IMG/VR virus record: IMGVR_UViG_3300030101_000543
Coordinates: 1-32,403 of that record
From: a virus
DNA length: 32,403 bases
Direction: 5' to 3' (one strand)
This document shows, in pieces, positions 1 through 32,403 of the stretch; the stretch's first letter is position 1; the number at the start of each line of letters is the position of its first letter. A program made the position numbers and the translations under genes. The notes below the pieces were generated by a model that was not told the origin of the DNA, made no database searches, and saw only the letters and a list, made by a program, of their open reading frames with translations.

Positions 1-90
1 TGATTGGTTTACAGAAGAAACAAATGAAAATATTGAAGAACAAACAAAGACAAATGATAGACAAAGAAAAGAACAAGCAAAAAACAAAAC
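1..90. repeat. Left copy of redundancy A (matches 30819-30908)
   Basis: Bases 1-84 are identical to 30819-30902. At 85 the copies differ (c versus g); 86-90 match again and the sequences then diverge completely. The repeat lies inside the minor head gene and codes for the linker after the MuF domain. It shows that the window is longer than one genome unit, with an offset of 30,818 bases here. The identity stops abruptly where the variable C-terminal cassette begins. Confidence 0.97.
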
Positions 91-877
91 TCAATCATTA
101 GTTCCTAATGTTGCAATCGGATCATTGTTGAATAAGGGTAGTGATAAAATAAGAAAAAATTATGAAGATGAATTTAATTCTCAACTAACAGATCAACAAA
201 AAAATATTGTAAACAGGATTGAAAAACCTACAAGCATATCAAGAGGAAGTGGTAAATATCGTTATAGAACAGGTGAATTAGTAGCAGGTTCTAATGCAAA
301 ATCTAAAGTGCAAGGTGGACAGGGAGTGAAAAGTTTTGTTATTGCACATGAATATGGGCATCACATTGATTATGTCACAAGTGGTGTTAAACTAAAATTT
401 TGGTCTGCACTAAATGAAGATTTTGCAAAAGCTATTGATAAAGATAGAAGGAAATTTAAAGGACAAAATTTTAAGGATCTTAGAGGTATTTCATCAGATG
501 GATATTATATTATAGATAATGAAGAATTAGATACAATATTTAATGAATTAGCTACAAGAGAAAAAAAAATAATCACAATAACTAGAAGAAAACGAAAATA
601 TGAAGTTACCAGAAATATTACGGAATTAAAAGGAGATGGATATGCATCAGTAAGTGATATAATTGATGCTTTAACTAGGGGTAATTTCTCAAAAAAGTAT
701 GGAATGTGGGGACATGGTACTAGTTATTTTAACAAACAAGGCTATATCCAAATGGAAATATTTGCTAATTTATTTGCTATAAAACATAACGAAAAAGCGT
801 ATAATCTTGCAAAAAAATACATACCAAATACTGTAAAGGAATTTGAAAAAAGATTAAAAGAATTAGAAAGATTTTAG
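2..877 (+). CDS. MuF-type minor head protein, C-terminal part with putative zinc-metallopeptidase domain (allele 1), 5' truncated
   Basis: The frame is open from base 2 and continues the same reading frame as the complete homologue at 29884-31758, so this is the 3' end of the minor head gene cut by the window edge. A TTG at 125 is not a real start. The first 28 codons match the linker of the other copy (from its residue 313), after which the protein is unrelated in sequence. The visible part is 291 aa; the full allele would be about 603 aa. It carries HEYGH (bases 347-361), the HExxH zinc-binding motif, and a downstream MEIFANLF with a candidate third ligand Glu at 755-757. A WGHGTSYF motif lies between them. 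From memory this C-terminal arrangement also occurs on minor head proteins of other phages. Peptidase activity is inferred. It could be an injected effector or, less likely, a head-maturation protease. Confidence 0.85.
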   Translation, partial: DWFTEETNENIEEQTKTNDRQRKEQAKNKTQSLVPNVAIGSLLNKGSDKIRKNYEDEFNSQLTDQQKNIVNRIEKPTSISRGSGKYRYRTGELVAGSNAKSKVQGGQGVKSFVIAHEYGHHIDYVTSGVKLKFWSALNEDFAKAIDKDRRKFKGQNFKDLRGISSDGYYIIDNEELDTIFNELATREKKIITITRRKRKYEVTRNITELKGDGYASVSDIIDALTRGNFSKKYGMWGHGTSYFNKQGYIQMEIFANLFAIKHNEKAYNLAKKYIPNTVKEFEKRLKELERF

Positions 878-884
878 AATATTT

Positions 885-1091
885 ATGACATTAACAACAG
901 ATCAAATACAAATAAAATTAGCAGAGTGTCAAGAGTCTAGTGATTTTTATAATTTATATTTATTACATTTTGGAGAGGAAGTGCCAAAACAATATACGCA
1001 AAGTGTTGGAGATGAAGTTGAAATAATAATTGATGCACTAATTGACAACAAAAAACTATCAAAAGAAAAATTACCCGAAATTTGGGATTGA
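885..1091 (+). CDS. Small acidic protein paired with metallopeptidase allele 1
   Basis: A 68-aa acidic protein begins 7 bases after the minor head gene stops. I do not recognise a family. It is rich in Asp and Glu, has no signal peptide or membrane segment, and ends in KLPEIWD. The other copy of this locus has a different small acidic protein (59 aa, 31759-31938) in the same place, ending KIPEELQNLD. Both stop codons lie exactly 47 bases before the scaffold ATG. The matched replacement of this gene with the upstream peptidase domain suggests a cognate partner such as an inhibitor, immunity protein or loading chaperone. That role is inference. The start has only a weak ribosome site, so translation is probably coupled to the upstream gene. 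Confidence 0.75.
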   Translation: MTLTTDQIQIKLAECQESSDFYNLYLLHFGEEVPKQYTQSVGDEVEIIIDALIDNKKLSKEKLPEIWD

Positions 1092-1114
1092 AAAATCTAT
1101 AATTATTTTATACA
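1088..1114 (+). promoter_or_regulatory. Possible promoter ahead of the scaffold gene
   Basis: The 47-base gap before the scaffold start holds TTGAAA (1088-1093), a perfect TATAAT (1098-1103) and TATACA (1109-1114). TTGAAA to TATACA gives a short 15-base spacer, and TATAAT has no good -35 at 17 bases. The matching gap in the second copy (31939-31985) has the same length but a different sequence and lacks TATAAT. AAGGAG before the ATG is conserved in both. The promoter call is weak. Confidence 0.3.
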
Positions 1115-1124
1115 TCTAGCATAA

Positions 1125-1556
1125 TAAGGAGAATTATTATGTCTGACGAGAACAAAACGGAAACAGTACAGGAAGAAACAAAACAAGAAGAAGTAGTAGA
1201 ACAAGTAGAAGCTAAAGAGCCAAAAGAAGATAGCCAAGCATTGATTGATAAAACAATCAAAGACAGACTTCATAGACAGAAAAGAAGAACACTAGAAGAT
1301 TTGGGTGTTGCTGACATTGAAGAAGCAAAAGAGATTATTGCTAGATCCAAAGAAGCTGAAGAAAAAAGAAAACTTGAAGCAGGTAAGTTTGAGGAAGTAA
1401 GGCAGTCTTTAGTTGATAATCATAAGAAAGAATTACAAAAATTACAAAATGAATTACGAGATGAAAAGATTGACAAACAATTAATTCAATCAGCATCTAG
1501 TAATAAAGCAATCAATCCTAATCAAGTAAAAGATTTATTGAAAAATAATGTTCGAC
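1125..1556. repeat. Left copy of redundancy B (matches 31972-32403)
   Basis: This stretch covers the scaffold ribosome site and the first 139 codons. It matches 31972-32403 over 432 bases with five mismatches: 1134 (t/c, leader), 1179 (c/a, Thr to Lys), 1240 (a/c, silent), 1474 (c/t, silent) and 1553 (c/a, silent Arg). The offset is 30,847 bases, 29 more than for redundancy A, because the two cassettes between the repeats differ in length. The mismatches indicate two closely related genomes rather than one sequence read twice. Confidence 0.97.
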
Positions 1557-1849
1557 TAAATCAAGAAGGTAGAGCAGAAATACTTGATAAAGATGGAACA
1601 ACAAGATACAACAAAGAAGGCAAACCATTAACCATAGATGAGTTTGTTTCTGAGTTTATGACACAGAATGCACACTTTCAAGTTGCAACCCCTTCTGGGA
1701 GTGGAAGTGTTGGTAATGTGGGGAAGGTAAACGCACAGACCTTTAATTTGGCGGACTTAGACATGACTAATCCAGAGGATAGAAAACGATATGCAGAATA
1801 TCGAAAAGAAAGAAATTCTAAACCAACTGTGATTAATCTAAATAAATAA
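1139..1849 (+). CDS. Scaffolding protein (DUF4355/GP20-like)
   Basis: A 236-aa hydrophilic, strongly charged protein lying directly before the major capsid gene, which is the usual place for a scaffold. The N-terminus is Glu/Lys-rich, residues about 60-125 look like a long coiled coil, and the C-terminal third has a Gly/Ser linker followed by a charged, helical end (DPEDRKRYAEYRKER is typical of this group, except that here it reads NPEDRKRYAEYRKER). It would guide assembly of the procapsid shell and then leave. The AAGGAG site at 1126-1131 fixes the start. No separate prohead protease is visible nearby. Function is inferred from position, composition and resemblance to the phage minor structural GP20/DUF4355 group. 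Confidence 0.85.
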   Translation: MSDENKTETVQEETKQEEVVEQVEAKEPKEDSQALIDKTIKDRLHRQKRRTLEDLGVADIEEAKEIIARSKEAEEKRKLEAGKFEEVRQSLVDNHKKELQKLQNELRDEKIDKQLIQSASSNKAINPNQVKDLLKNNVRLNQEGRAEILDKDGTTRYNKEGKPLTIDEFVSEFMTQNAHFQVATPSGSGSVGNVGKVNAQTFNLADLDMTNPEDRKRYAEYRKERNSKPTVINLNK

Positions 1850-1875: not shown

Positions 1876-2715
1876 ATGGCAAATGAAACAACAAGTAGTA
1901 CGATATCAGAACTATATACTGAGATCGTAGCAGAAGCATTGTTTGTTGCTTCCGAGCAATCAATTATGCGAAATCTTGTGCGAAATTACACTATTGCTGG
2001 GGGCGGCAAATCTGTAGAAGTACCGATTTACGCAAATGTATCAGCAGCAGCAGTAAATGAAGCAACAGATTTATCAAACACAGCAATCAACCCTACATCT
2101 GTGACTATCACAGCTTCAGAGGTTGGTATTATGACAACACTTACAGACTTAGCTAGAAATTCAGCATCAAGAAATGTTGCGGCAGACATTGGAAGATTAT
2201 TCGGTGAAGCTATTGCAAGAAAAGTTGATGCAGATTTATCAGCATTGTTCACAGGCTTTTCAACAGAAAGAGGTGGTGGTGCAGGTAATGAACTAACTGT
2301 TCAAGACTTGTTTGAAGCGGCGGCAGACCTAAGAACTGCTAATGCACCTGCACCTTATTATGGTGTATTTCACCCAAAGCAAATCTTTAATGTTAAGAAG
2401 TCATTAACAAACACATTTGTTGGTAGAGATACAGAATTATCAAATGAAGCTATGAGAAGTGGTTTTGTTGGTAATATCGCAGGTATTCAAATATTTGAAA
2501 GTTCAAATGTTTCTGTTGATGGATCAGATGACTCTATTGGTGGTGTATTCTCACAAGATGCTTTAGCACTTGCTATGATGCAAGATCTAAAGATTGAGAG
2601 CCAAAGGGATGCTTCGTTGAGGGCTGATGAGCTAGTAGCCACAGCAGTTTTTGGAGTAAGTGAAATCCACGACAGCTATGGTGTTAAATTAACAGCAGAT
2701 AGCTTGGCTAACTAA
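1876..2715 (+). CDS. Major capsid protein
   Basis: A 279-aa protein following the scaffold by 26 bases, with AAAGGAG before the ATG. It is rich in Ala, Thr and Ser, with the pattern of an HK97-fold coat protein: an N-terminal helix, a GGGKSVEVPIY strand (residues about 43-53), a central helix around RNSASRNVAADIGRLFGEAI, and a C-terminal strand region ending in YGVKLTADSLAN. It lacks the long delta domain that scaffold-independent coats carry, which fits the separate scaffold gene. A strong hairpin follows the gene, separating this highly expressed unit from the tail genes. Coat identity rests on composition, size and order; I am fairly sure. Confidence 0.88.
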   Translation: MANETTSSTISELYTEIVAEALFVASEQSIMRNLVRNYTIAGGGKSVEVPIYANVSAAAVNEATDLSNTAINPTSVTITASEVGIMTTLTDLARNSASRNVAADIGRLFGEAIARKVDADLSALFTGFSTERGGGAGNELTVQDLFEAAADLRTANAPAPYYGVFHPKQIFNVKKSLTNTFVGRDTELSNEAMRSGFVGNIAGIQIFESSNVSVDGSDDSIGGVFSQDALALAMMQDLKIESQRDASLRADELVATAVFGVSEIHDSYGVKLTADSLAN

Positions 2716-15142: not shown

Positions 15143-15702
15143 GAAATGTTTGGCTCATTTATTTTATATCAGCTTTACTAATCACATTTATTTTATTTTT
15201 ACCTAAAGCATATTCAGAAACAAATACAGTTTCTAATTCTACAGTCACAGTAGATAAAACACCACCATCAGCAAATTCACCATCTATAAATTCTGTGAAC
15301 AGTTTTATATGTCGTAGTGGTGTGTCTGGTGCTGTTCAAACCCAAATACTTGGTATTAGTAGTGGTATGACTATTATAGACCTTAACTGTGAGAGATTAT
15401 TGCTAAGCCAAACTTTATTTAAGCAGGGGCTTCGTGTAGCTTCGGTAAGCATACTTTGTCAAGATAAGAGGGTGTTTATTGCTATGCAAAATTCTGGAAC
15501 AAGTTGCCCTGTTTATGATCCTGTAAATAAAGTTTCTTTAATCGGACAAGAAGCACAAGATTATTGGGAAGCAAATCCACATCTAAGACCAGATTATGAA
15601 GATATAAAAGAGCAAATTGTAGAAGAAAAAAAACAAGAAGGAACTTTTGATGATATTAAGGATTTTGGTCTTTTGGCTCTTAGTATGCTTGTATTCCTCT
15701 AA
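15139..15702 (+). CDS. Exported cysteine-containing phage protein of unknown function
   Basis: A 187-aa protein with an N-terminal signal peptide or anchor (residues 6-24, IYFISALLITFILFLPKAY). The mature part has Cys in four separate places: FICRSGVSGAV, DLNCERLL, SILCQDKRV and TSCPVY. I know this pattern from marine phages, where it lies after the tail genes, but no function is established to my knowledge. The even number of Cys suggests disulfides in the periplasm. The last 15 residues (FGLLALSMLVFL) are hydrophobic and lie in the stretch where the next gene's signal peptide is read in another frame. Confidence 0.7.
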   Translation: MRNVWLIYFISALLITFILFLPKAYSETNTVSNSTVTVDKTPPSANSPSINSVNSFICRSGVSGAVQTQILGISSGMTIIDLNCERLLLSQTLFKQGLRVASVSILCQDKRVFIAMQNSGTSCPVYDPVNKVSLIGQEAQDYWEANPHLRPDYEDIKEQIVEEKKQEGTFDDIKDFGLLALSMLVFL

Positions 15703-16981
15703 AGCTGAAGAAATAGATACAGGTAATTTAGTTCCACCTGCTGATGAGTGGACATTAGAAGATAAAGCATCAACAACCCAATGTAGTTATTCTGGTCAAT
15801 TACAAGATGGAGAAGTTTGCACAGGTAGTTCAAGTATTCGTGGTGGCTACAATGAAAATGATGGTGGCAAGATTGTTTCAGATCAAATAAGTCTTATAAA
15901 TCAAGGTTTATCTATTGCAGAGATACAACAAGGATTTGATTATCAATATGGTGCAAGTATTGAGAGCCATGTCAGTAATACAAATGTTCCAAGTTGTTCT
16001 AATACCAATGGTGATTGCAAAGATTATTTTACAATAACTGTCAATCTATCTGATGAAACAGGATCAGTTTTTAGAACACATGAACACACAGTAGAAATGA
16101 ACTATGTGGGTGTTGAGGATTATTCTTATTCTCAATCTTTATCAGCAAACAATTATTTAGATGTAAACTTTCAAATGGATATCTGGTCTGTAGATGCAGG
16201 ATTTACTACAGGCTTTTATGGTGGGATTATATCAGATCCATTTTTATCTGTTCAATATCAAACAGTAGAGATCATCACAGATATCATAGATGATATTGTA
16301 AATGACATTGTATTTGAAGAAATAGAATATGAAGAAGTTTCATTTGAAGTTGTGATAGAAGATTATTTTAATGAAGATATTTCTTTTGAAATAGATTTTG
16401 CACCAATAGAAGATTTAGATATATCTATTGATATTCCGATACTTGAGGATTTACCAGAGATTGAAGTAGAACTTTATGCAGAATTAGATGAACAGATCAT
16501 GGAAGAATTACCAGAGATGATTGAAGAAATGCCAGAGGAGATTGAGATAGAAGTTGTAGAGGAACAACCAGAAGAAATAGTTGAAGAACAACCAGAAGAG
16601 ATTGTAGAAGAACCACAAGAAGAAACTATAGAAGAAGTTGTTGAAGAAACAGTTGATGAACCAGAGCAAGAAGAAGTTGAAGAAACTACTACTGAAAAAC
16701 CTAACGCAAGAGAAATGAAACAAAAGATTGCAAAAAAGATTATTGCAAGTCAAAAAGATAAAATGTCAGTAGAGTCACAAACAACACAGTTAGCTTTGAT
16801 GATTGTTTTAGCTGATACTGATTTCAACAGCTATACAGATAAAGAATTATTAGATAGACAATTTTATGAAGATGTAAATTTGTATCTAGATCAAAACATG
16901 ATAGAAGATACTAACTTAGATTTATTTTATATGGATTATTTAGGAATGAATGAATTAGTGGATTTACAATGGCAGAGGTAG
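15647..16981 (+). CDS. Exported acidic protein with Glu-Pro-rich repeats
   Basis: A 444-aa protein starting 56 bases before the previous gene ends. Residues 1-20 are a clear signal peptide (ILRILVFWLLVCLYSSKA). Residues about 30-190 look like a folded exported domain with a few Cys. From about 200 to 360 it is an extremely acidic, low-complexity region, including tandem copies of EEIVEEQP. The last 85 residues are more normal and helical. The function is unknown; the position before the coiled-coil membrane proteins and lysis genes suggests a virion or envelope role. Confidence 0.7.
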   Translation: MMILRILVFWLLVCLYSSKAEEIDTGNLVPPADEWTLEDKASTTQCSYSGQLQDGEVCTGSSSIRGGYNENDGGKIVSDQISLINQGLSIAEIQQGFDYQYGASIESHVSNTNVPSCSNTNGDCKDYFTITVNLSDETGSVFRTHEHTVEMNYVGVEDYSYSQSLSANNYLDVNFQMDIWSVDAGFTTGFYGGIISDPFLSVQYQTVEIITDIIDDIVNDIVFEEIEYEEVSFEVVIEDYFNEDISFEIDFAPIEDLDISIDIPILEDLPEIEVELYAELDEQIMEELPEMIEEMPEEIEIEVVEEQPEEIVEEQPEEIVEEPQEETIEEVVEETVDEPEQEEVEETTTEKPNAREMKQKIAKKIIASQKDKMSVESQTTQLALMIVLADTDFNSYTDKELLDRQFYEDVNLYLDQNMIEDTNLDLFYMDYLGMNELVDLQWQR

Positions 16982-24502: not shown

Positions 24503-24804
24503 TGGCAAGACCAAAAGAATATAATATCAATCCAGAAGAAATAATTAAATTAGCTAGTTATGGTTGTACTAATACTGAAATAGCTGATTTCTATGGGTGT
24601 AGTGAGAACACTATAAGGCGTTATGGCGAATATCTGACAAAAGGTAGAAGTGAAGGTAAAATCAGATTACGAAAGATACAATGGCAGATAGCTGAAAAAG
24701 GAAATGCAGTCATGGGTATCTGGCTTGGTAAGAATATTTTAGGTCAATCAGACAATGGAATGATGGAAGATGATGATACACCATTACCATTTAATGTAGA
24801 GTGA
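24502..24804 (+). CDS. Terminase small subunit
   Basis: A 100-aa protein with an HTH (KLASYGCTNTEIADFYGCSE, then NTIRRYGEYL) and a helical second half (RKIQWQIAEKGNAVMGIWLG), the plan of terminase small subunits. It recognises packaging DNA and passes it to the large subunit. It is separated from the large subunit by a DNA methyltransferase gene, which is unusual. It overlaps that gene by 4 bases. Confidence 0.8.
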   Translation: MARPKEYNINPEEIIKLASYGCTNTEIADFYGCSENTIRRYGEYLTKGRSEGKIRLRKIQWQIAEKGNAVMGIWLGKNILGQSDNGMMEDDDTPLPFNVE

Positions 24805-25547
24805 TACAGCTTTACAATAATGATTGTTTTGATGTTTTTTCAAAAATTGAAGATAATTCTATAGATCTTATACTAACAGATCCACCATATGGCACAACAG
24901 CTTGTAAGTGGGATAGTATAATTCCATTTGATCCTATGTGGAAAGAGTTAAAAAGAATTATTAGAGATAGTGGGTGTATTGCTTTATTTGGTACAGAGCC
25001 TTTTAGTTCTAAATTAAGATTATCTAATTTAAATTGGTTTAAATATGATTGGATTTGGGAAAAAAATAAAATTCATGGATTATTTAAAAATCAACCAAGA
25101 AGATCTTTTGAAATAATATCAATTTTTTATAAAAAACCACCAATTTGGAATGAAATTAAAATTAAACGAACAGAAAAAGAATATAAATTATGCAAAAGAA
25201 CAAAAAACTCAAAAACAATAGGTTCAGTTCATAGACCAAATCAAGAATTTATTTTAATTAGAAAATCTCTTGAAGATCAATGGTATAAAAAACCTATAAA
25301 TATTTTACAGTTCAATAAAGATGATATTAGAAATGGCAAACAACACCCAACGCAAAAACCATTAGCTTTACTTGAATATCTTATTAAAACCTATACTAAT
25401 GAAAATAATATTGTTTTAGATTTTACTATGGGATCTGGTTCAACAGGAGTGGCTTGTAAAAATTCAAATAGAAAATTCATTGGCATTGAAAAGGATAAAG
25501 AATACTTTGAAATAGCAAAAACAAGAATACACAATGCCCTTATCTAA
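24801..25547 (+). CDS. DNA methyltransferase, beta-type (N6-adenine or N4-cytosine)
   Basis: 248 aa with a GTG start. The catalytic DPPYG motif is at residues 27-31, the TRD region lies between, HPTQKP is near residue 184, and the SAM-binding motif FTMGSGSTG follows near 207. Catalytic motif before SAM motif is the beta-class order. It would protect phage DNA from host restriction. The TRD-like middle is very AT-rich, more so than its neighbours, hinting at a different source. It overlaps both terminase genes, so it is read within the packaging operon. Confidence 0.88.
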   Translation: MIQLYNNDCFDVFSKIEDNSIDLILTDPPYGTTACKWDSIIPFDPMWKELKRIIRDSGCIALFGTEPFSSKLRLSNLNWFKYDWIWEKNKIHGLFKNQPRRSFEIISIFYKKPPIWNEIKIKRTEKEYKLCKRTKNSKTIGSVHRPNQEFILIRKSLEDQWYKKPINILQFNKDDIRNGKQHPTQKPLALLEYLIKTYTNENNIVLDFTMGSGSTGVACKNSNRKFIGIEKDKEYFEIAKTRIHNALI

Positions 25548-26757
25548 AGCACAAAAAGAAGTATTTACATCAGAGGCTAGGTTTAGAGTTCTTATTACAG
25601 GCAGAAGATTTGGTAAAACATTTTTGGCTTTGAATGAACTAGCTAAGTTTTCAAGATATCCAAGAAAAAAAGTCTGGTACATAGCACCAACCTATAGAAT
25701 GTGTAAAGACATAATGCTTGATCCATTGGTCGATAAAATGACAAAACATAAATGGATTAGCAAGGTAAACTATTCTGATCTTACAATATCACTTAGAAAT
25801 AAATCACTAATACAGCTTAGATCAAGTGAGAACTTTAATGCTTTGAGAGGCGTGGGATTAGACTTTATTTGTATTGATGAGTTTTCAGATGTAGATGAGA
25901 GAGCATGGTTTGAAGTTCTAAGACCAACATTATCAGATAAATCTAAGGAAGGATCAGCATTGTTTTTGGGTACACCTAGAGGATATGGTAATTGGAGTTA
26001 TAATTTATTTACAAAACATGAGTCTGATAAGAATTGGCAATCATTTCAATATACTACATTAGATGGTGGTCAAGTATCAGCAAACGAAATAGACCAAGCT
26101 AAGAATGATCTTGATGATAGAACATTTAGACAAGAATACATGGCTTCATTTGAGAAATATTCTGGGCAGATATATTATAACTTTGATAGAGAGCAGAATG
26201 TTATAGAACAATATGCACCTACAACTAATTCAATACACATAGGCATAGATTTTAATGTTGACCCCGTTTCAGCAGTTATATCAGAAGTAAAACAAGATAA
26301 CTTGTATGTGTATGATGAAATTGTCATTTACAGTAGCAATACTGACGAACTTGTTGAAGAAATCAATAATCGCTACTCTGGAAAACATATATTCGTATAT
26401 CCCGATCCTGCATCAAAGCAAAGGAAAACAAGTGCAGGTGGTAAAACAGATTTATCTATATTAAAAAACGCAGGGTATAATGTAAGAGTAAGGAACGCAC
26501 ACCCATTGATTAGAGATAGGATTAATGCAGTAAATACAAAACTAAAAAATGCAAAGGGAGTAAGAACATTATTTATTGCAAATAACTGTAAGAATGTGAT
26601 AAAGAGTATAGAACGACAAATTTATAAAGAAGGAACGAGTTTGCCAGATAAGGAAAACAATTACGATCACATGAATGATGCACTAGGATATTTAGTTGAG
26701 TTTTTATACCCAATCAAAAGAGATTTCAAACCCTCACCACCACAGAGGTTCAGTTAA
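25534..26757 (+). CDS. Terminase large subunit
   Basis: 407 aa. Walker A GRRFGKT is at residues 23-29, Walker B FICIDEF at 111-117, the coupling motif LFLGTPRG near 145, and the C-terminal nuclease has GIDFNVDP (about 238) and DHMNDALGY (about 382). It cuts concatemers and pumps DNA into the head. It is shorter than many large subunits but has all main motifs. Confidence 0.95.
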   Translation: MPLSKAQKEVFTSEARFRVLITGRRFGKTFLALNELAKFSRYPRKKVWYIAPTYRMCKDIMLDPLVDKMTKHKWISKVNYSDLTISLRNKSLIQLRSSENFNALRGVGLDFICIDEFSDVDERAWFEVLRPTLSDKSKEGSALFLGTPRGYGNWSYNLFTKHESDKNWQSFQYTTLDGGQVSANEIDQAKNDLDDRTFRQEYMASFEKYSGQIYYNFDREQNVIEQYAPTTNSIHIGIDFNVDPVSAVISEVKQDNLYVYDEIVIYSSNTDELVEEINNRYSGKHIFVYPDPASKQRKTSAGGKTDLSILKNAGYNVRVRNAHPLIRDRINAVNTKLKNAKGVRTLFIANNCKNVIKSIERQIYKEGTSLPDKENNYDHMNDALGYLVEFLYPIKRDFKPSPPQRFS

Positions 26758-28178
26758 TGGCAAGTTATAAAAGAGATTTTTTAACAGCTAGACATGATGA
26801 TTATGAGTCTAAATTTAATGATTGGAACTTTCATTTATTATCATATTTAGGTGGTCAAGATTATCAGAATGGTTATCTACTCAATAGATATGTTCTAGAG
26901 TCAGATGAGGAGTATATCAAGAGAATGAATAATACCCCTATTGATAATCATTGTAAGAATGTAGTTCAAATCTATTCATCATTCCTATTTAGAGTTCCAC
27001 CCACAAGAAACTATGGCAGTCTATCTGGTGATGAACAACTTAATAATTTTTTGAAAGATGCAGATTTAGATGGTAGATCCTTTGACAATATAATTAGAGA
27101 AATGCAAATCAATGCTTCTATCTATGGAACTTGTTGGGCAATCATGGATAAACCTGCTGTGCAAACAGAAACAAGAGCAGAAGAAATACAGCTTGATATC
27201 AGACCATATATATCTGTTTACACACCAGAGAATGTTTTGAATTGGCAGTTCCAAAGAATGATAAATGGTAGATATGAATTAGTATCACTAACACTATTAG
27301 AAAACTTACAAAATGATGTAGCAACTATTAGAGTATGGACAAAAGAAGATATATCTACTTTGATGGTCAAAGATTTCAACAAAGGATATTCTACATCTCA
27401 ACCAATACTTGTTGATGAAATGCCAAATATGATTAATGAGATACCTGCTGTAATTTTATACAATCAGAAGTCACAAAAACGAGGTATTGGTATTAGTGAT
27501 TTACAAGATGTAGCTGAACTACAAAAAGCTATCTACAATGATTATTCAGAAATAGAACAACTTATCAGATTATCTAATCACCCAAGTTTAGTCAAAACAC
27601 CTAATGTAGAAGCTAGTGCAGGTGCAGGATCTATAATTGAAATGCCAGAAGATATGGAACCAAACTTAAAACCATACATCATACAACCATCATCACAATC
27701 ACTTGATGGCATCATGTCTAATATTCAAATGAAAGTAGATGCAATCAACAGAGTCACACATATGGGATCAGTAAGAGGAACAGAAAAAACAATCAACTCT
27801 GGTATAGCTTTACAAACAGAGTTTGAATTATTGAATGCAAGACTATCAGAGAAAGCAGATTATTTAGAGAATGCAGAGGAACATATTTGGAGATTGTTTG
27901 CTAAGTGGCAAGATAAAGAGTTTGATGGTGAGATAGAATATCCAGACAGCTTTAATCTTAGAGATTATTCTGCTGATCTACAGTTCCTACAAGTAGCAAA
28001 AGCATCTGGAGTTTCTTCTGATACTTTTGCAAAAGAAGTAGATAAACAAATAGCAAGAGCAGTTGTTGAAGATGATGATAAATTAGCAGATATTGATAGT
28101 GAGATAGAAGCTAAACCAAGACCAATAGGACAGTTCTCAACACCTGCAATAGAGGGTGAAGAAGTTGCCGAAGGGTAA
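26757..28178 (+). CDS. Portal protein
   Basis: 473 aa after the terminase (TAATG junction). Portal patterns are visible: CKNVVQIYSSFLFR near residue 63, GISDLQDVAELQKAIYNDYS near 245, and a long helical stem (LNARLSEKADYLENAEEHIW). The acidic C-terminus is typical of the barrel end. It forms the dodecameric gate at one head vertex. The final 23 bases overlap a basic small gene in another frame. Confidence 0.88.
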   Translation: MASYKRDFLTARHDDYESKFNDWNFHLLSYLGGQDYQNGYLLNRYVLESDEEYIKRMNNTPIDNHCKNVVQIYSSFLFRVPPTRNYGSLSGDEQLNNFLKDADLDGRSFDNIIREMQINASIYGTCWAIMDKPAVQTETRAEEIQLDIRPYISVYTPENVLNWQFQRMINGRYELVSLTLLENLQNDVATIRVWTKEDISTLMVKDFNKGYSTSQPILVDEMPNMINEIPAVILYNQKSQKRGIGISDLQDVAELQKAIYNDYSEIEQLIRLSNHPSLVKTPNVEASAGAGSIIEMPEDMEPNLKPYIIQPSSQSLDGIMSNIQMKVDAINRVTHMGSVRGTEKTINSGIALQTEFELLNARLSEKADYLENAEEHIWRLFAKWQDKEFDGEIEYPDSFNLRDYSADLQFLQVAKASGVSSDTFAKEVDKQIARAVVEDDDKLADIDSEIEAKPRPIGQFSTPAIEGEEVAEG

Positions 28179-28353
28179 AAGACGCAAAGTTCCAAAGGAT
28201 AAGAAAACAGGTGTACCCAAGAAGTATTTATCTGGACTTAAAAATGAAGAAGAAAGAAAGAAAAGAGCCAGACTTATCAAAAGAGTTTCAGCATTATACA
28301 AAGCAGGTAAACGCATACCTGCATCTTTACTAAGGGCAAGGACAAAAGCATAA
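28156..28353 (+). CDS. Small basic protein
   Basis: 65 aa with a GTG start; 26 residues (40%) are Lys or Arg. KKYLSGLKNEEERKKRARLI in the centre is a helical signature I know from small phage proteins near portal genes. It probably binds DNA in the head or prohead. No established function. Confidence 0.68.
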   Translation: MKKLPKGKRRKVPKDKKTGVPKKYLSGLKNEEERKKRARLIKRVSALYKAGKRIPASLLRARTKA

Positions 28354-28592
28354 TGGCAGTCAAAAGAAAACCCTTATCAGCATCAGTTCAAGCAACACTT
28401 AAAAGAAAAGCAAAAGCATCAAAGAGATACACATACGGAACATTAGCCAAAGTATATCGTAGAGGACAGGGTGCGTTCCTATCAGCAGGAAGTCGTAGAG
28501 TTCCTATGAGTGCTTGGGCTATGGGTAGAGTCAATAGCTTTCTTAGAGGATCAAGGAAGCATGATTTAGATTTAAGAAAGAGGAAGAAATAA
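28353..28592 (+). CDS. DUF5824-like basic protein
   Basis: 79 aa, strongly basic. KRYTYGTLAKVYRRGQGAFL and SRRVPMSAWAMGRVNSFL are strong family signatures of the DUF5824 group seen next to portal genes of marine phages. Function unknown; a head or DNA-binding role is inferred. It is joined to both neighbours by TAATG. Confidence 0.75.
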   Translation: MAVKRKPLSASVQATLKRKAKASKRYTYGTLAKVYRRGQGAFLSAGSRRVPMSAWAMGRVNSFLRGSRKHDLDLRKRKK

Positions 28593-28774
28593 TGGTAAAA
28601 GTAGCATCAATCAAAAACATCATCAAAGATCTAACACCAAGACAGCAAAGAACTATGCGTAGTCATGCCAGACACCACAGTTTAAAGCACATGAGGTCTA
28701 TGGCTAGGTCTTTAAAAAATGGCAAAACATTTGGTCAAGCACATACTACTGCTATGAGAAATGTTGGAAAGTAA
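28592..28774 (+). CDS. Small His/Arg-rich protein
   Basis: 60 aa with six His and many Arg residues (RQQRTMRSHARHHSLKHMRS). The middle helix would be strongly basic. No family recognised with confidence. It lies in the row of basic genes between portal and minor head protein. Confidence 0.62.
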   Translation: MVKVASIKNIIKDLTPRQQRTMRSHARHHSLKHMRSMARSLKNGKTFGQAHTTAMRNVGK

Positions 28775-28914
28775 TGCCTTTAATAAAAGGCTACAGCAAA
28801 AAATCTATTGATAAGAATATCAGAACAGAGATGAGGTCTGGTAAATCAAGGAAACAAGCTGTTGCAATAGCATTATCTGTTGCTAAAAAAGCAAAGAAAA
28901 GAAGAAGAAAATAA
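28774..28914 (+). CDS. DUF6496-like basic protein
   Basis: 46 aa starting at a TAATG junction. KGYSKKSIDKNIRTEMRSG and RKQAVAIALSVAKKAKKRR fit the DUF6496 pattern. Function unknown. It is one of five adjacent basic genes, likely virion or DNA-binding proteins. Confidence 0.7.
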   Translation: MPLIKGYSKKSIDKNIRTEMRSGKSRKQAVAIALSVAKKAKKRRRK

Positions 28915-29192
28915 TGGCAACATATCGAGGTAGATCAGTTAAATTAAATAAACCATTTAGAACACCAAATAAAAGCAAGAAGTTTGGAGTCTATGTAAGA
29001 GATAGATCATCTGGGAATGTCAGAATAGTTAGATTTGGTGATCCTAATATGAAGATAAAGAAGAATATTCCTGCTAGACAAAGGTCATTTTTGGCTAGAA
29101 TGGGTGGTGTTTTGAAGCAAGTAAAAGGGCAAAAGTCATTATCTCCTGCTTTTTGGTCAATAAAAGCATGGAAAAAAAGTTTTCCTCTCTAG
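28914..29192 (+). CDS. Basic phage head-region protein (YRGR family)
   Basis: 92 aa. It starts with TYRGRSVKLNKPFRTPNKSK and contains KFGVYVRDRSSGNVRIVRFG and FGDPNMKI, close to a protein of marine phages that is often near head genes or fused to head proteins. From memory, relatives carry Cys in the region ARHNC...WSC; here the corresponding part reads ARMGG...WSI, so the cysteines are missing and zinc binding may be lost. Function unknown. Confidence 0.7.
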   Translation: MATYRGRSVKLNKPFRTPNKSKKFGVYVRDRSSGNVRIVRFGDPNMKIKKNIPARQRSFLARMGGVLKQVKGQKSLSPAFWSIKAWKKSFPL

Positions 29193-29252
29193 TTGCATTC
29201 CTATAAAAAATATATACATTTTCTATATGTTAAATAATAAGGAGATATAAAA
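29193..29252 (+). promoter_or_regulatory. Promoter and leader, copy 2
   Basis: TTGCATT (29193), CTATAAAA, TATACA (29213-29218), then ATGTTAAATAATAAGGAGA (29226-29244) before the ATG at 29253. It repeats the block at 20846-20908 with small spacing changes. It would give the following methyltransferase-like gene, and perhaps the minor head genes, expression under early-type control. Confidence 0.7.
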
Positions 29253-29843
29253 ATGAAAGTTCTAATAGCCTGTGAATATTCAGGGATAGTAAGAGAAGCA
29301 TTCAAAAAAAAAGGACATGATGCTTGGAGTGTAGATATTTTACCAACAGAAATAGAAGGCAATCATATTCAAGATGATGTTCTAAACCATATTGATAAAG
29401 GTTGGGATTTGATGATTGCACACCCACCTTGCACTCATTTATCAGTAAGTGGTGCTAGATGGTTCACACAAGGTTATAAACCTATTTCTTTAAGAAATGA
29501 TGCTATAAATTTTGTAAAAAAATTGTTTGATGCAAAAATAGAAAAAATTGCAATAGAAAATCCTATCTCAGTAATATCTTCATACATAAGAAAATCAGAT
29601 CAAACTATACACCCTTATCATTTTGGAGAACCACATATGAAAGCAACTTGTTTGTGGCTTAAAAATTTACCTAAATTAAAATATACAGATGTTGTAGAAC
29701 CAGAGTTTGTATATAGTGCTAAAGGAAGAAAATGGTCTAAATGGTTTTGGGAAACATCATGCTTACCACCTAAAGAGAGAGGCAAAGCAAGAAGTAAATT
29801 TTGGGTTGGTATTGCTAAGGCTATGGCAGATCAATGGTCATAA
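29253..29843 (+). CDS. C5-cytosine methyltransferase-like protein (short)
   Basis: 196 aa. ACEYSGIVREAFKKKGHDAW gives a SAM-binding start, AHPPCTHLSVSGARWF has the catalytic Pro-Cys, and AIENP replaces the ENV motif. C5-methyltransferases are usually over 300 aa with a target recognition domain; this one is too short to hold a full one. It may be a minimal enzyme or have another use. A promoter/leader copy lies directly upstream, so it seems to be its own unit inside the head genes. Confidence 0.78.
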   Translation: MKVLIACEYSGIVREAFKKKGHDAWSVDILPTEIEGNHIQDDVLNHIDKGWDLMIAHPPCTHLSVSGARWFTQGYKPISLRNDAINFVKKLFDAKIEKIAIENPISVISSYIRKSDQTIHPYHFGEPHMKATCLWLKNLPKLKYTDVVEPEFVYSAKGRKWSKWFWETSCLPPKERGKARSKFWVGIAKAMADQWS

Positions 29844-29883: not shown

Positions 29884-31758
29884 ATGGCAGACGCATTCAA
29901 AGACAGTTTCAAACAATTTGCAAATAAAAAACAGCAAATACTTTCAAGATTAGCTGATACTCACGAAGAAAGAATAATAAATACATTAAAGAATTTAGAA
30001 GATGAGATAATTGCTGATCTTACTAGATTGACTGATGGTGGTGTCAAACTCAATACTAGACTTGCAATAGAATTAAGACCAAACCTTAAAACATTAATAG
30101 AGCAAAACTTTTTAAAAGAAGCAGATGGTATTGTTTCTGAATATGATGAAATAGTAAAAGAATATCAAAGATTTATTAAGCCTTTACCAATACCAGAAAC
30201 ATTCAAAACACTTACAAAACCAGATCTAAGAGTCATCAATGAACTAAAGATACTTTCATTCTCTGGGTTCGAAGATGTAGGTAATAGATTTTTAGATACA
30301 ATAGCAAACGAAGTGTATCAATCTTCTGTGACAGGCAGACCATTCAACGAAATGGTTAAGAACATCAGAGGGCAGATTAGTGGTGTATACCAAAGATCAA
30401 ACGAGAACGCAGTTAATAGACTTGTAGATTATATAGATAAAAATAGATATTCAGAGAATGCACAGATTATTGCAAAAGTAAAAAATGCAAGAGAGATACT
30501 TCACACTAAATATGCTTCAGATATCCTAGGCAACAATATGAGAAGATATGCAGGGCAAATAGCACAAGATAGTTTGATGCAGTTTGATGGTCAGTTTACT
30601 TTATACAAAGGTAAAGAAGCAGGTATTACCAAGTATCAATATGTTGGAACAAATATTACTACAACCAGAGATTTTTGTAGAAGATATTTAGATAGAGTTT
30701 TCACAGAAGAAGAAGCTAGAGAGATATGGCAAGGATCATGGAGAGGTAAGTCTGGCACAGATCCATTTATCAATAGAGGTGGCTATAGATGTAGGCACAG
30801 TTTTATTCTGTATGATGATGATTGGTTTACAGAAGAAACAAATGAAAATATTGAAGAACAAACAAAGACAAATGATAGACAAAGAAAAGAACAAGCAAAA
30901 AAGAAAACACCAGAAAGAACATTCAATATAAATAACAATAAATTATATTCATCATTTGATAACAATAATGTTAATGAGTTTGGTAACATTATGAATAGTC
31001 TTGAAGGTCAAGAAATATCAAACCAAAAAATATCTAAGTTTATGGAAAAACATGGTATTACAGCATTATTTCTATCAAAACAAGTGACAGGTAAATCTTT
31101 CAGACAAAACGAGTTTAAAAAAGTTAATGAACAGTACAAAAAGAATATTCCAAAAGGTGAGAAAGCTACTTTGTATGCAAGAAATTATGATTTAGATTTA
31201 GAAGAAGCAGATATAAACAGATATCCAAGATCAAGAGTTAGTGGTTATGCTTCACCAATAAATAACGCACCTGTGGCTTGGATCACAGAAACAGACGATT
31301 TTACCAAAATTGATACTAAAATTTTACAAAAAAATACAGAGAAGGTTATAAATAGAACAAAAAATGGTGAAGGTAGATATGTTACAAAAGGAAAATTTGG
31401 AGAGAAAAAAAATGCAGATTGGTCATTTTTTACAGGTGCTACAAGTAGTGAAGAACAAAAAATAAAGACTATGCTACACGAAATTGGTCATCAAGTGCAT
31501 TTTTACGCAACTACTAATAATAATGGCTTATTCACAACTAATACATTTATGGATATTTATAAAAATGCACCAAAAGAACAAAGAAAAAATTTTATTTTAA
31601 CTAATTATCAACAAAAAGATAAATATGAACAACACGCAGAACTATTTACAGCTTATGCAACTAATAGAAAAGCATTAGAGAAATATAATCCAAGCCTTGT
31701 GGAATATATGGATAATTTACTAGACAAGGCAATAAACAGTACAACGAAAGGATATTAA
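29884..31758 (+). CDS. MuF-type minor head protein with C-terminal putative zinc-metallopeptidase domain (allele 2)
   Basis: 624 aa. Residues about 1-150 are helical. The MuF/SPP1 gp7-like domain covers about 150-312 (NITTTRDFCRRYLDRVFTEE, then GGYRCRHSFILY). The linker after residue 313 is identical to the start of the window until residue 340. Residues 341-624 are the variable part, with LHEIGHQVHF (HExxH at 532-536) and the candidate third ligand in QHAELFTAY (Glu586). MuF proteins enter the cell with the DNA in some phages and some carry C-terminal toxins; that this one is injected is inference. There is no separate prohead protease in the window, so capsid maturation is an alternative job, but the exchange of the whole domain between near-identical genomes fits better with an effector. 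Confidence 0.88.
   Translation: MADAFKDSFKQFANKKQQILSRLADTHEERIINTLKNLEDEIIADLTRLTDGGVKLNTRLAIELRPNLKTLIEQNFLKEADGIVSEYDEIVKEYQRFIKPLPIPETFKTLTKPDLRVINELKILSFSGFEDVGNRFLDTIANEVYQSSVTGRPFNEMVKNIRGQISGVYQRSNENAVNRLVDYIDKNRYSENAQIIAKVKNAREILHTKYASDILGNNMRRYAGQIAQDSLMQFDGQFTLYKGKEAGITKYQYVGTNITTTRDFCRRYLDRVFTEEEAREIWQGSWRGKSGTDPFINRGGYRCRHSFILYDDDWFTEETNENIEEQTKTNDRQRKEQAKKKTPERTFNINNNKLYSSFDNNNVNEFGNIMNSLEGQEISNQKISKFMEKHGITALFLSKQVTGKSFRQNEFKKVNEQYKKNIPKGEKATLYARNYDLDLEEADINRYPRSRVSGYASPINNAPVAWITETDDFTKIDTKILQKNTEKVINRTKNGEGRYVTKGKFGEKKNADWSFFTGATSSEEQKIKTMLHEIGHQVHFYATTNNNGLFTTNTFMDIYKNAPKEQRKNFILTNYQQKDKYEQHAELFTAYATNRKALEKYNPSLVEYMDNLLDKAINSTTKGY
30819..30908. repeat. Right copy of redundancy A (matches 1-90)
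   Basis: Identical to 1-84 and then one difference (30903, g instead of c) before the sequences part. This marks the left crossover edge of the variable cassette, inside the codons for the charged linker after the MuF domain. Confidence 0.97.
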
Positions 31759-31938
31759 ATGGCAATAGAATTACCAAAAGAGTTCGATCAAGCAGAATTA
31801 TTACTAAATCAAGATCCACTACCAAATAACATTATAGAACAACTTGATAAACTTAGAGCAAAATTAATAGATAGTGACAAAATTATTTTTGATGATCTAT
31901 ATGATAAAATACCAGAGGAGTTGCAAAATTTAGATTGA
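31759..31938 (+). CDS. Small acidic protein paired with metallopeptidase allele 2
   Basis: The ATG at 31759 follows the minor head stop directly with no gap. The product is a 59-aa acidic protein (MAIELPKEFDQAELLLNQDP at the start, ending KIPEELQNLD) with no signal or membrane part. It occupies the place of the unrelated-looking 68-aa protein at 885-1091, and its stop lies the same 47 bases before the scaffold ATG. I do not recognise it. The two ends (KLPEIWD and KIPEELQNLD) could be remnants of common ancestry. A partner, inhibitor or immunity role for the upstream domain is inferred. Confidence 0.75.
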   Translation: MAIELPKEFDQAELLLNQDPLPNNIIEQLDKLRAKLIDSDKIIFDDLYDKIPEELQNLD

Positions 31939-31971
31939 AAAACACAGTTTTTATATTAAATCTATAAATAT

Positions 31972-32403
31972 TAAGGAGAACTATTATGTCTGACGAGAAC
32001 AAAACGGAAACAGTACAGGAAGAAAAAAAACAAGAAGAAGTAGTAGAACAAGTAGAAGCTAAAGAGCCAAAAGAAGATAGCCAAGCCTTGATTGATAAAA
32101 CAATCAAAGACAGACTTCATAGACAGAAAAGAAGAACACTAGAAGATTTGGGTGTTGCTGACATTGAAGAAGCAAAAGAGATTATTGCTAGATCCAAAGA
32201 AGCTGAAGAAAAAAGAAAACTTGAAGCAGGTAAGTTTGAGGAAGTAAGGCAGTCTTTAGTTGATAATCATAAGAAAGAATTACAAAAATTACAAAATGAA
32301 TTACGAGATGAAAAGATTGATAAACAATTAATTCAATCAGCATCTAGTAATAAAGCAATCAATCCTAATCAAGTAAAAGATTTATTGAAAAATAATGTTA
32401 GAC
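31972..32403. repeat. Right copy of redundancy B (matches 1125-1556)
   Basis: 432 bases matching 1125-1556 with five differences, up to the window end. It carries the ribosome site and start of a second scaffold gene. Confidence 0.97.
31986..32403 (+). CDS. Scaffolding protein, second copy, 3' truncated by the window end
   Basis: 139 codons of the scaffold gene, differing from the copy at 1139 by one amino acid (Lys for Thr14) and three silent changes. It is the same locus from a related genome rather than an extra gene. AAGGAG is conserved at 31973-31978. Confidence 0.92.
   Translation, partial: MSDENKTETVQEEKKQEEVVEQVEAKEPKEDSQALIDKTIKDRLHRQKRRTLEDLGVADIEEAKEIIARSKEAEEKRKLEAGKFEEVRQSLVDNHKKELQKLQNELRDEKIDKQLIQSASSNKAINPNQVKDLLKNNVR

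What the first reader, a model, noticed from the sequence alone, without database searches (positions are those of the whole stretch)
85..1124. Whole-domain allele swap at the C-terminus of a capsid-borne MuF protein
Between flanks that are about 99-100% identical, the locus carries two unrelated roughly 1-kb cassettes (85-1124 and 30903-31971). Both join in frame to the same linker at the same codon (residue 340). This is a hot spot where a complete C-terminal domain is exchanged while the rest stays the same, the signature of polymorphic effector systems. MuF-domain polymorphic toxins are known from temperate phages of other hosts; here the phage shows no sign of lysogeny and both alleles are putative zincins.
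Basis: partly seen in the sequence, partly recalled or inferred. Interest (0 to 1): 0.92.

Follow-up and report, generated by a model that had tools for sequence, protein, structure and literature searches.

The report
Swappable protease cassette in phage gene
A marine phage related to viruses of SAR11 bacteria carries, at the end of a predicted head-protein gene, an exchangeable zinc-protease-like domain together with a tiny partner gene, and near-identical phages carry quite different versions, which looks like a weapon-and-antidote set in viruses that show no sign so far of living quietly inside their host.

Summary
The swap is real. Between flanks identical at 84/84 and 430/436 positions, the contig carries two different cassettes. 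Of 160 relatives fetched by the N-part, 152 could be scored: 104 lack a CTD, 47 have one (47 of 47 with HExxH), one is frameshifted. A small ORF follows 126 of 128 collected CTD entries, its family matching the CTD family with no cross-pair. Contigs L200/L201 repeat the exchange (599/600 upstream, 533/534 downstream, CTD cores 13% identical). On the N-part tree cassette presence changes 5 times, cassette family 20 times. Allele A's model (pLDDT 95.8) resembles lethal-factor/PPEP metallopeptidases; allele B rests on motif and a remote link. No integrase of two families was found in 17 records. The isolate HTVC026P carries such a cassette. Best reading: a head-borne protease effector delivered with the DNA, with a cognate protective partner: MuF-polymorphic-toxin-like, zincins only, in apparently virulent SAR11-type phages, whereas a published survey found MuF toxins only in temperate phages. 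Delivery, target and protection are inferred.

The parts
29884..30902 (+). Constant N-terminal carrier domain and linker of the MuF-like predicted minor head protein
   Evidence: ORF 29884-31758; relatives; lies between portal and scaffold; remote profile match to a set of MuF-type N-parts
30903..31758 (+). Allele B C-terminal domain (family III), zincin motif HEIGH at 31477-31491
31759..31938 (+). Small partner ORF of allele B (59 aa), start codon abuts the stop of the CTD; candidate immunity/inhibitor protein
31986..32403 (+). Second, partial copy of the scaffold gene at the contig end
2..84 (+). Second copy of the linker at the contig start, identical to 30820-30902
85..877 (+). Allele A C-terminal domain (family I), zincin motif HEYGH at 347-361; modelled fold is lethal-factor/PPEP-like
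885..1091 (+). Small partner ORF of allele A (68 aa); candidate immunity/inhibitor protein
1139..1849 (+). Head scaffolding protein, right flank of the exchange site
   Evidence: phrog_206 E 2.9e-19
1876..2715 (+). Major head protein
   Evidence: phrog_267 E 5.4e-23
26757..28178 (+). Portal protein
   Evidence: phrog_145 E 8.1e-62
25534..26757 (+). Terminase large subunit; four of the five best phage-record hits are pelagiphages
   Evidence: 51.5-52.8% identity to HTVC026P/111P/202P/112P

Best explanation
The locus is an exchangeable effector cassette on a predicted head protein. The constant N-part (MuF-like, encoded between portal and scaffold) would put the protein in or near the head/portal. 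The C-terminal domain is a zincin with its motif intact that would enter the cell with the DNA and cleave a protein there. The small ORF just behind it encodes a cognate partner, most likely an inhibitor that keeps the protease harmless in the cell where it is made, and perhaps in a cell already infected by kin. Recombination in the constant linker and near the start of the scaffold gene replaces CTD and partner together, so nearly identical phages carry different pairs. SHOWN: the swap, its boundaries, the pairing with the small gene, the empty state, the zincin motif, and for allele A a confident model with that fold. INFERRED: packaging, ejection, proteolysis of a cell target, protection by the small protein, and the recombination route.
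For: Flanks 84/84 and 430/436 around two cassettes. L200 vs L201: 599/600 up, linker 94/96, 36/36 before the scaffold ATG, 533/534 down, CTD cores 13% and small proteins 25% identical. 47 of 47 closed CTDs among the 152 scored N-part relatives, and isolate HTVC026P, hold HExxH; 98 of 99 short loci with a measured gap leave 77 nt or less before the scaffold, the 38 CTD loci with a measured gap leave 202-291 nt (one 517). Small ORF behind 126 of 128 CTD entries (some from the same contigs); families pair I-I 104, II-II 15, III-III 6, plus a singleton in HS6, no cross-pair; the misses are a contig end and a frameshifted CTD. Mantel, 35 loci: N-part/scaffold r 0.87, CTD/small r 0.89, across the blocks 0.33-0.38; within family I CTD/small r 0.89, n 104. 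In the fetched loci 134 of 135 small-ORF profile hits lie next to an HExxH ORF, the other beside the frameshifted CTD. N-part tree: family changes 20, presence 5; family II needs 13 changes for 15 members. Median dN/dS 0.18-0.25 for CTDs and small genes of families I and II. Fold of A: Z 11.1, 3.1 A over 152 aa to a lethal-factor catalytic domain, Z 8.9-10.0 to PPEP peptidases. The same CTD family sits on PF04233 (MuF) proteins in 9 of 10 tested; the tenth has the window's carrier type.
Against: No activity, target, virion proteomics or binding data. Cross-block Mantel correlations, though low, also exceed all 2000 permutations, and cassette labels are clustered on the tree overall (21 changes against a shuffled mean of 45.8), so cassettes are partly inherited with the backbone. 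Foldseek alone gave no PDB match at E <= 0.001. Allele B could not be modelled well. Pfam does not recognise the window's N-part as MuF and first profile comparisons were weak. A polymorphic toxin would be expected to draw on many activities, yet only zincins appear. A virulent phage has no lysogen to protect, so the need for an immunity gene is less obvious.
Confidence: 0.6

Rival explanations
1. The CTD is a virion-maturation or self-processing protease: it cuts the carrier, scaffold or other head proteins during assembly, and the small ORF is its regulator.
For: Zincin domains of phage polyvalent proteins have been proposed to process proteins (PMC5512222, passages). The gene sits between portal and scaffold.
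Against: 104 of 152 scored relatives lack the CTD (L009 corrected), and so do three of the four pelagiphage isolates with annotated scaffold and capsid genes. Near-identical carriers bear CTD cores only 13-18% identical (L200/L201, L183/L192), which is hard to square with cleavage of one conserved head substrate.
Confidence: 0.15
2. The small ORF is a packaging chaperone or adaptor that helps load the CTD into the head, not an immunity protein.
For: Strict pairing and correlated divergence with the CTD would also be seen for a dedicated chaperone.
Against: Downstream small genes next to MuF toxins were interpreted as immunity genes (PMC5576092 section 8). No direct evidence here separates the two.
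Confidence: 0.2
3. The variation is an assembly chimera or a neutral allele mix with no selected function.
For: The window's two alleles sit at the two ends of one contig, where assemblers fail.
Against: Cassettes and junctions recur in other contigs. Low dN/dS and complete HExxH conservation argue for function.
Confidence: 0.03

Closest known systems
MuF polymorphic toxins of temperate phages (Jamet et al. 2017, PMC5576092; abstract, passages and sections 8, 11, 13 seen)
   Same: Head-module carrier near portal/terminase genes, C-terminal toxin domain, metallopeptidases among the toxins (20% of 191 there), small downstream ORF in 89.4% of toxin genes but 25.5% of short ones
   Different: That survey found toxins only in temperate phages, mainly of Firmicutes, and none in virulent phages. 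Here the phages are SAR11-type with no integrase found, the repertoire is zincin-only, and near-identical backbones exchange whole CTD-partner pairs
Polyvalent proteins with zincin MPTase domains (Iyer et al. 2017, PMC5512222; passages seen)
   Same: Phage-delivered proteins carrying zincin domains linked to lethal-factor endopeptidase, proposed as effectors or processing enzymes
   Different: Those are large multi-domain proteins; here one CTD on a short carrier, paired with a small gene and swapped as a cassette
Lethal-factor / PPEP (Zmp1) type metallopeptidases
   Same: Fold of the allele A model: Z 11.1 to lethal-factor catalytic domain, Z 8.9-10.0 to PPEP-1/2/3; HExxH with a downstream E-x-[FHL]-A-type motif in 82 of 84, 15 of 15 and 4 of 5 cores of families I-III; one of 45 family I domains hits PF07737 at E 2.8e-5
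   Different: Sequence identity 11-16% in the listed rows; phage head-gene context; substrate unknown
Pseudoalteromonas phage HS6 minor head protein (NC_070820, gp28) with gp27
   Same: Family III CTD, 28.9% identical to allele B, on a head protein, small ORF overlapping its end
   Different: Different carrier and portal type; its small ORF matches no other small family here

Membership tests
MuF polymorphic toxins | N-terminal MuF domain | tested here: inconclusive
   No Pfam MuF hit for the window protein nor for the 29 members of A3 (one weak Phage_min_cap2 hit, E 0.003). First profile comparisons weak: probability up to 14% for the window type, under 1% for the HTVC026P type, 0.2-1% for a shuffled control. 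A larger alignment gives 90%, E 1.4e-6, over 246 columns with set M1 (11 rows, five of them Pfam-confirmed); no shuffled control was run for it, and set M2 is not independent because it held a row of the window's carrier type.
MuF polymorphic toxins | Gene lies in the portal/terminase head module | tested here: met
   Terminase, portal, several ORFs including a methyltransferase, carrier, scaffold, head protein in this order
MuF polymorphic toxins | Exchangeable C-terminal domain on a constant N-part | tested here: met
MuF polymorphic toxins | Small downstream ORF with the CTD, absent from short forms | tested here: met
   126 of 128 CTD entries; 98 of 99 short loci with a measured gap have no room for one
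MuF polymorphic toxins | Found in temperate phages or prophages | tested here: inconclusive
   No PF00589 or PF00239 match in 17 records incl. window and four isolates; several records are fragments and other lysogeny routes were not searched
MuF polymorphic toxins | C-terminal domain is toxic and small protein protects | not testable with these tools
   needs bench work
Zincin metallopeptidases, lethal-factor/PPEP type | HExxH motif | tested here: met
   48 of 48 closed CTDs found through the carrier, isolate HTVC026P included
Zincin metallopeptidases, lethal-factor/PPEP type | Fold (allele A) | tested here: met
   Model pLDDT 95.8, Z 11.1, 3.1 A over 152 aa; Foldseek alone not significant
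Zincin metallopeptidases, lethal-factor/PPEP type | Fold (allele B) | tested here: inconclusive
   Model of B unreliable; profile link III-II probability 97%, III-I 13%

The most novel reading that the evidence does not exclude
Virulent SAR11-type phages carry allotypes of a head-borne protease-antidote pair that are exchanged under diversifying selection. The injected protease sabotages a cell already taken by a rival phage (or that rival's proteins) and the partner gene makes an infected cell immune only to kin, so this is phage-against-phage warfare with no lysogeny involved.
Probability: 0.25. Interest if true: 0.88.

Novelty: new variant of a known kind. Interest (0 to 1): 0.7.

Why it matters
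MuF toxins have been explained through lysogeny, because the survey that defined them saw them only in temperate phages (PMC5576092, sections 11 and 13). A zincin-only set of swappable effector-partner cassettes in phages with no integrase found would loosen that link and asks what a virulent phage needs an antidote for. The nearest isolates infect SAR11, described as the most abundant surface bacterioplankton (PMC10504331, abstract start), and the cultured pair HTVC026P / HTCC1062 carries one allele (gp30-gp31), so the question is testable.

Tried and rejected
Pfam, PHROGs and NCBIfam do not name the window's carrier or its CTDs; weak sub-threshold hits only. Of nine proteins given to PHROGs, the two window small proteins, that of HTVC026P and two family I relatives have no match; the HS6 one matches phrog_18304 (unknown function). 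Rfam and tRNA searches gave nothing. Sequence searches of solved structures gave no convincing hit for the CTD or the carrier. Structure search of the full allele B protein gave mainly helical-bundle matches and did not test the MuF fold. Allele A has no tblastn match at 1e-5 in the phage records. One scan of bacterial and archaeal genomes confirmed 11 weak relatives of 136 pattern matches, titled as Clostridia-type organisms (eight) or Proteobacteria MAGs (three), none as Pelagibacter; a pattern scan does not exclude prophages there. Clustering of CTDs with their linkers merged everything and was replaced by core clustering; at E 1e-3 all cores still join, at 1e-6 they form three families. 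One search missed six small ORFs; five were found on inspection with other start positions or, the sixth is at a contig end. HExxH conservation in the family I loci is partly built in, since HEYGHHID was a search peptide. Three truncated loci (L132, L145, L158) were dropped before clustering; eight of 160 loci had open CTD ends and were not scored. Both N-part scans list only the best 80 (of 220, and of at least 580), and the query included the linker, so CTD frequencies are not population estimates. L009 was first counted as short and then corrected to frameshifted family I; figures predate this. The tree is a quick one with 47 of 137 inner branches weakly supported. The dN/dS script stopped with an error before the family III small gene and the carrier; its pairs are not independent. 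Literature searches for a precedent in SAR11 phages found none, within open-access papers only.

Full report
WHAT IS THERE. The window is a 32,403-base virus record whose ends overlap as in a circular map (my inference), but imperfectly: 1-84 equals 30819-30902 at 84/84 and 1121-1556 equals 31968-32403 at 430/436. Between these flanks the two ends carry different sequence. The full-length ORF 29884-31758 (624 aa) carries allele B; the ORF open at the contig start (2-877) carries allele A. The first differing codon is residue 340. The order is terminase (25534), portal (26757), several ORFs including a methyltransferase, carrier, scaffold (1139), head protein (1876). The terminase is closest to the pelagiphages HTVC026P, 111P, 202P and 112P and to lake phage DSL-LC06 (51.5-52.8%; 1992 records match in all).

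THE UNIT OF EXCHANGE. Behind each C-terminal domain (CTD) lies a small ORF: A 885-1091 (68 aa, 7 nt after the stop), B 31759-31938 (59 aa, start abutting the stop). They differ from each other and lie inside the exchanged block. I collected relatives by the N-part: 80 loci (best of 220) and 80 (best of at least 580). The query included the linker, and both lists are capped, so frequencies are not population estimates. Of these, 78 and 74 could be scored; eight end inside the CTD region. In the first set 67 end 13-21 aa after the conserved CRH motif and 11 carry a CTD; in the second 38 and 36. One of the 67 (L009) is a frameshifted CTD locus, so 104 of 152 are short. All 47 closed CTDs hold HExxH, as does that of isolate HTVC026P. 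The scaffold starts within 77 nt in 98 of 99 short loci where the distance could be measured; the exception, L022 (333 nt), holds a small ORF that matches none of the three small families. The 38 CTD loci with a measured distance leave 202-291 nt, apart from L189 (517, frameshift).

PAIRING. CTDs, the isolates, the window and phage HS6 gave 128 entries, some from the same contigs (104 non-identical cores). At E 1e-6 they form three families: I (106), II (15), III (7); at 1e-3 all join. Window allele A is family I, allele B family III. A small ORF was found behind 126; families pair I-I 104, II-II 15, III-III 6, plus the HS6 singleton; no cross-pair. The two misses are L070 (contig end) and L189 (frameshift). 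Profiles built from these ORFs gave 135 hits in the loci fetched (mostly a few kilobases round the head genes, plus the window and HTVC026P whole): 134 next to an HExxH ORF and one beside the frameshifted L189 CTD. In 35 loci with all parts, distances of N-part and scaffold correlate (r 0.87), those of CTD and small protein correlate (r 0.89), and across the two blocks 0.33-0.38; the cross values too exceed all 2000 permutations, so cassettes are partly inherited with the backbone. Within family I the CTD/small correlation is 0.89 over 104 entries. Entries are related, so permutation counts are not probabilities of independent events.

THE SWAP ELSEWHERE. L200 and L201 match at 599/600 upstream, 94/96 in the linker after the CRH motif, 36/36 before the scaffold start and 533/534 behind it, while CTD cores are 13% and small proteins 25% identical. 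L183/L192 have N-parts of identity 1.00 (rounded; 584/600 in DNA), cores 18% identical. The right boundary is less constant in other pairs: L005/L006 differ right up to the scaffold start. On a tree of the N-parts (163 rows, 155 labelled), cassette family needs 20 changes, presence versus absence 5; family II needs 13 changes for 15 members, close to shuffled labels (mean 14.5, 42 of 500 as low), with 10 forced by well-supported branches. Over all four states the labels are more clustered than shuffled ones (21 against 45.8, before the L009 correction). So having a cassette is a fairly stable trait, and which cassette changes much faster. Two contigs whose names share the prefix 3300037961, which I take to be one sample, carry family III (L007) and family I (L009) on the window's own carrier type.

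WHAT THE DOMAIN IS. The alignment of 45 family I domains keeps HEYGHHID and a downstream GH, Y and E without exception (HEYGHHID was a search peptide). One of the 45 hits PF07737 (lethal factor) at E 2.8e-5. The model of allele A is confident (pLDDT 95.8, pTM 0.93). VIA-align ranks lethal-factor catalytic domains first (Z 11.1, 3.1 A over 152 residues), then PPEP-1/2/3 peptidases (Z 8.9-10.0), with more distant peptidases at Z 4. Foldseek alone gave no PDB match at E 0.001; in the viral library the best three are minor capsid or head morphogenesis proteins (E 3.4e-5, 1.4e-3, 7.2e-3). Families II and III are linked by profiles (97%), I to II only over 19 columns at the motif (85%), I to III not (13%). 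Allele B has the motif HEIGH but no reliable model. Median dN/dS is 0.18-0.25 for CTDs and small genes of families I and II, as for working genes.

THE CARRIER. Pfam does not call the window protein MuF. Nine of ten tested family I proteins carry PF04233; the tenth, L104, has the window's carrier type (profile match 100%). First profile comparisons of the window type with MuF sets were weak; a larger alignment matched set M1 (11 rows, five Pfam-confirmed) at 90%, E 1.4e-6, over 246 columns ending at the CRH segment, without a shuffled control. I call it MuF-like.

LIFESTYLE AND ISOLATES. No tyrosine integrase (PF00589) or serine recombinase (PF00239) match in 17 records: window, 12 contigs (some fragments), four isolates; the searches rang in 14 and 10 of 14 control genomes. 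HTVC026P (host HTCC1062) has gp30 with a family II CTD and gp31 behind it; HTVC111P, 202P and 112P have the short form.

HOW IT MOST LIKELY WORKS. A head-borne protease that enters with the DNA and cuts a protein in the cell, with a partner that silences it where it is made. Packaging, entry, cleavage and silencing are inferred from MuF precedent (PMC5576092, abstract, passages and sections 8, 11, 13; PMC5512222 and PMC3482391, passages). A self-processing role is less likely because most scored relatives lack the domain. A chaperone role for the small protein is not excluded.

NOVELTY. Jamet et al. report MuF toxins only in temperate phages and none with a known toxin domain in virulent ones. 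The combination here (virulent-looking SAR11-type phages, zincins only, fast exchange of paired cassettes between near-identical backbones, with a cultured carrier) was not met in my searches, which cover open-access papers only and were read as listings beyond the papers named. I rate it a new variant of a known kind.

Noticed in passing
window 28353-29843: Between portal and carrier lies a second cargo stretch (small ORFs with phrog_28338 and phrog_7595 matches and a DNA methyltransferase, phrog_757); in HTVC111P and HTVC202P this place holds a single minus-strand ORF, in HTVC026P and HTVC112P nothing is annotated.
   Followed up: partly
window 24801-25547 and 29253-29843: Two DNA methyltransferase genes with different best families (PF01555; phrog_757) in one small phage genome.
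   Followed up: no
window 16549-16620: Three tandem 24-nt units inside the ORF 15647-16981.
   Followed up: no
L263 (phage DSL-LC06) 6254-8964: A terminase relative of the window whose annotated head module has no carrier gene between portal and scaffold, only two short ORFs.
   Followed up: no
L022 2290-2623: A short-form locus with a small ORF of no known family here between carrier and scaffold.
   Followed up: partly
L189 around 2378-2899: Family I CTD interrupted by a frameshift (or a sequencing error), with its small ORF still intact downstream.
   Followed up: partly
L005/L006 and L200/L203: Scaffold proteins only 58% and 76% identical although the carrier N-parts are 97% and 100% (rounded) identical, so exchange also occurs just downstream of the cassette.
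   Followed up: no
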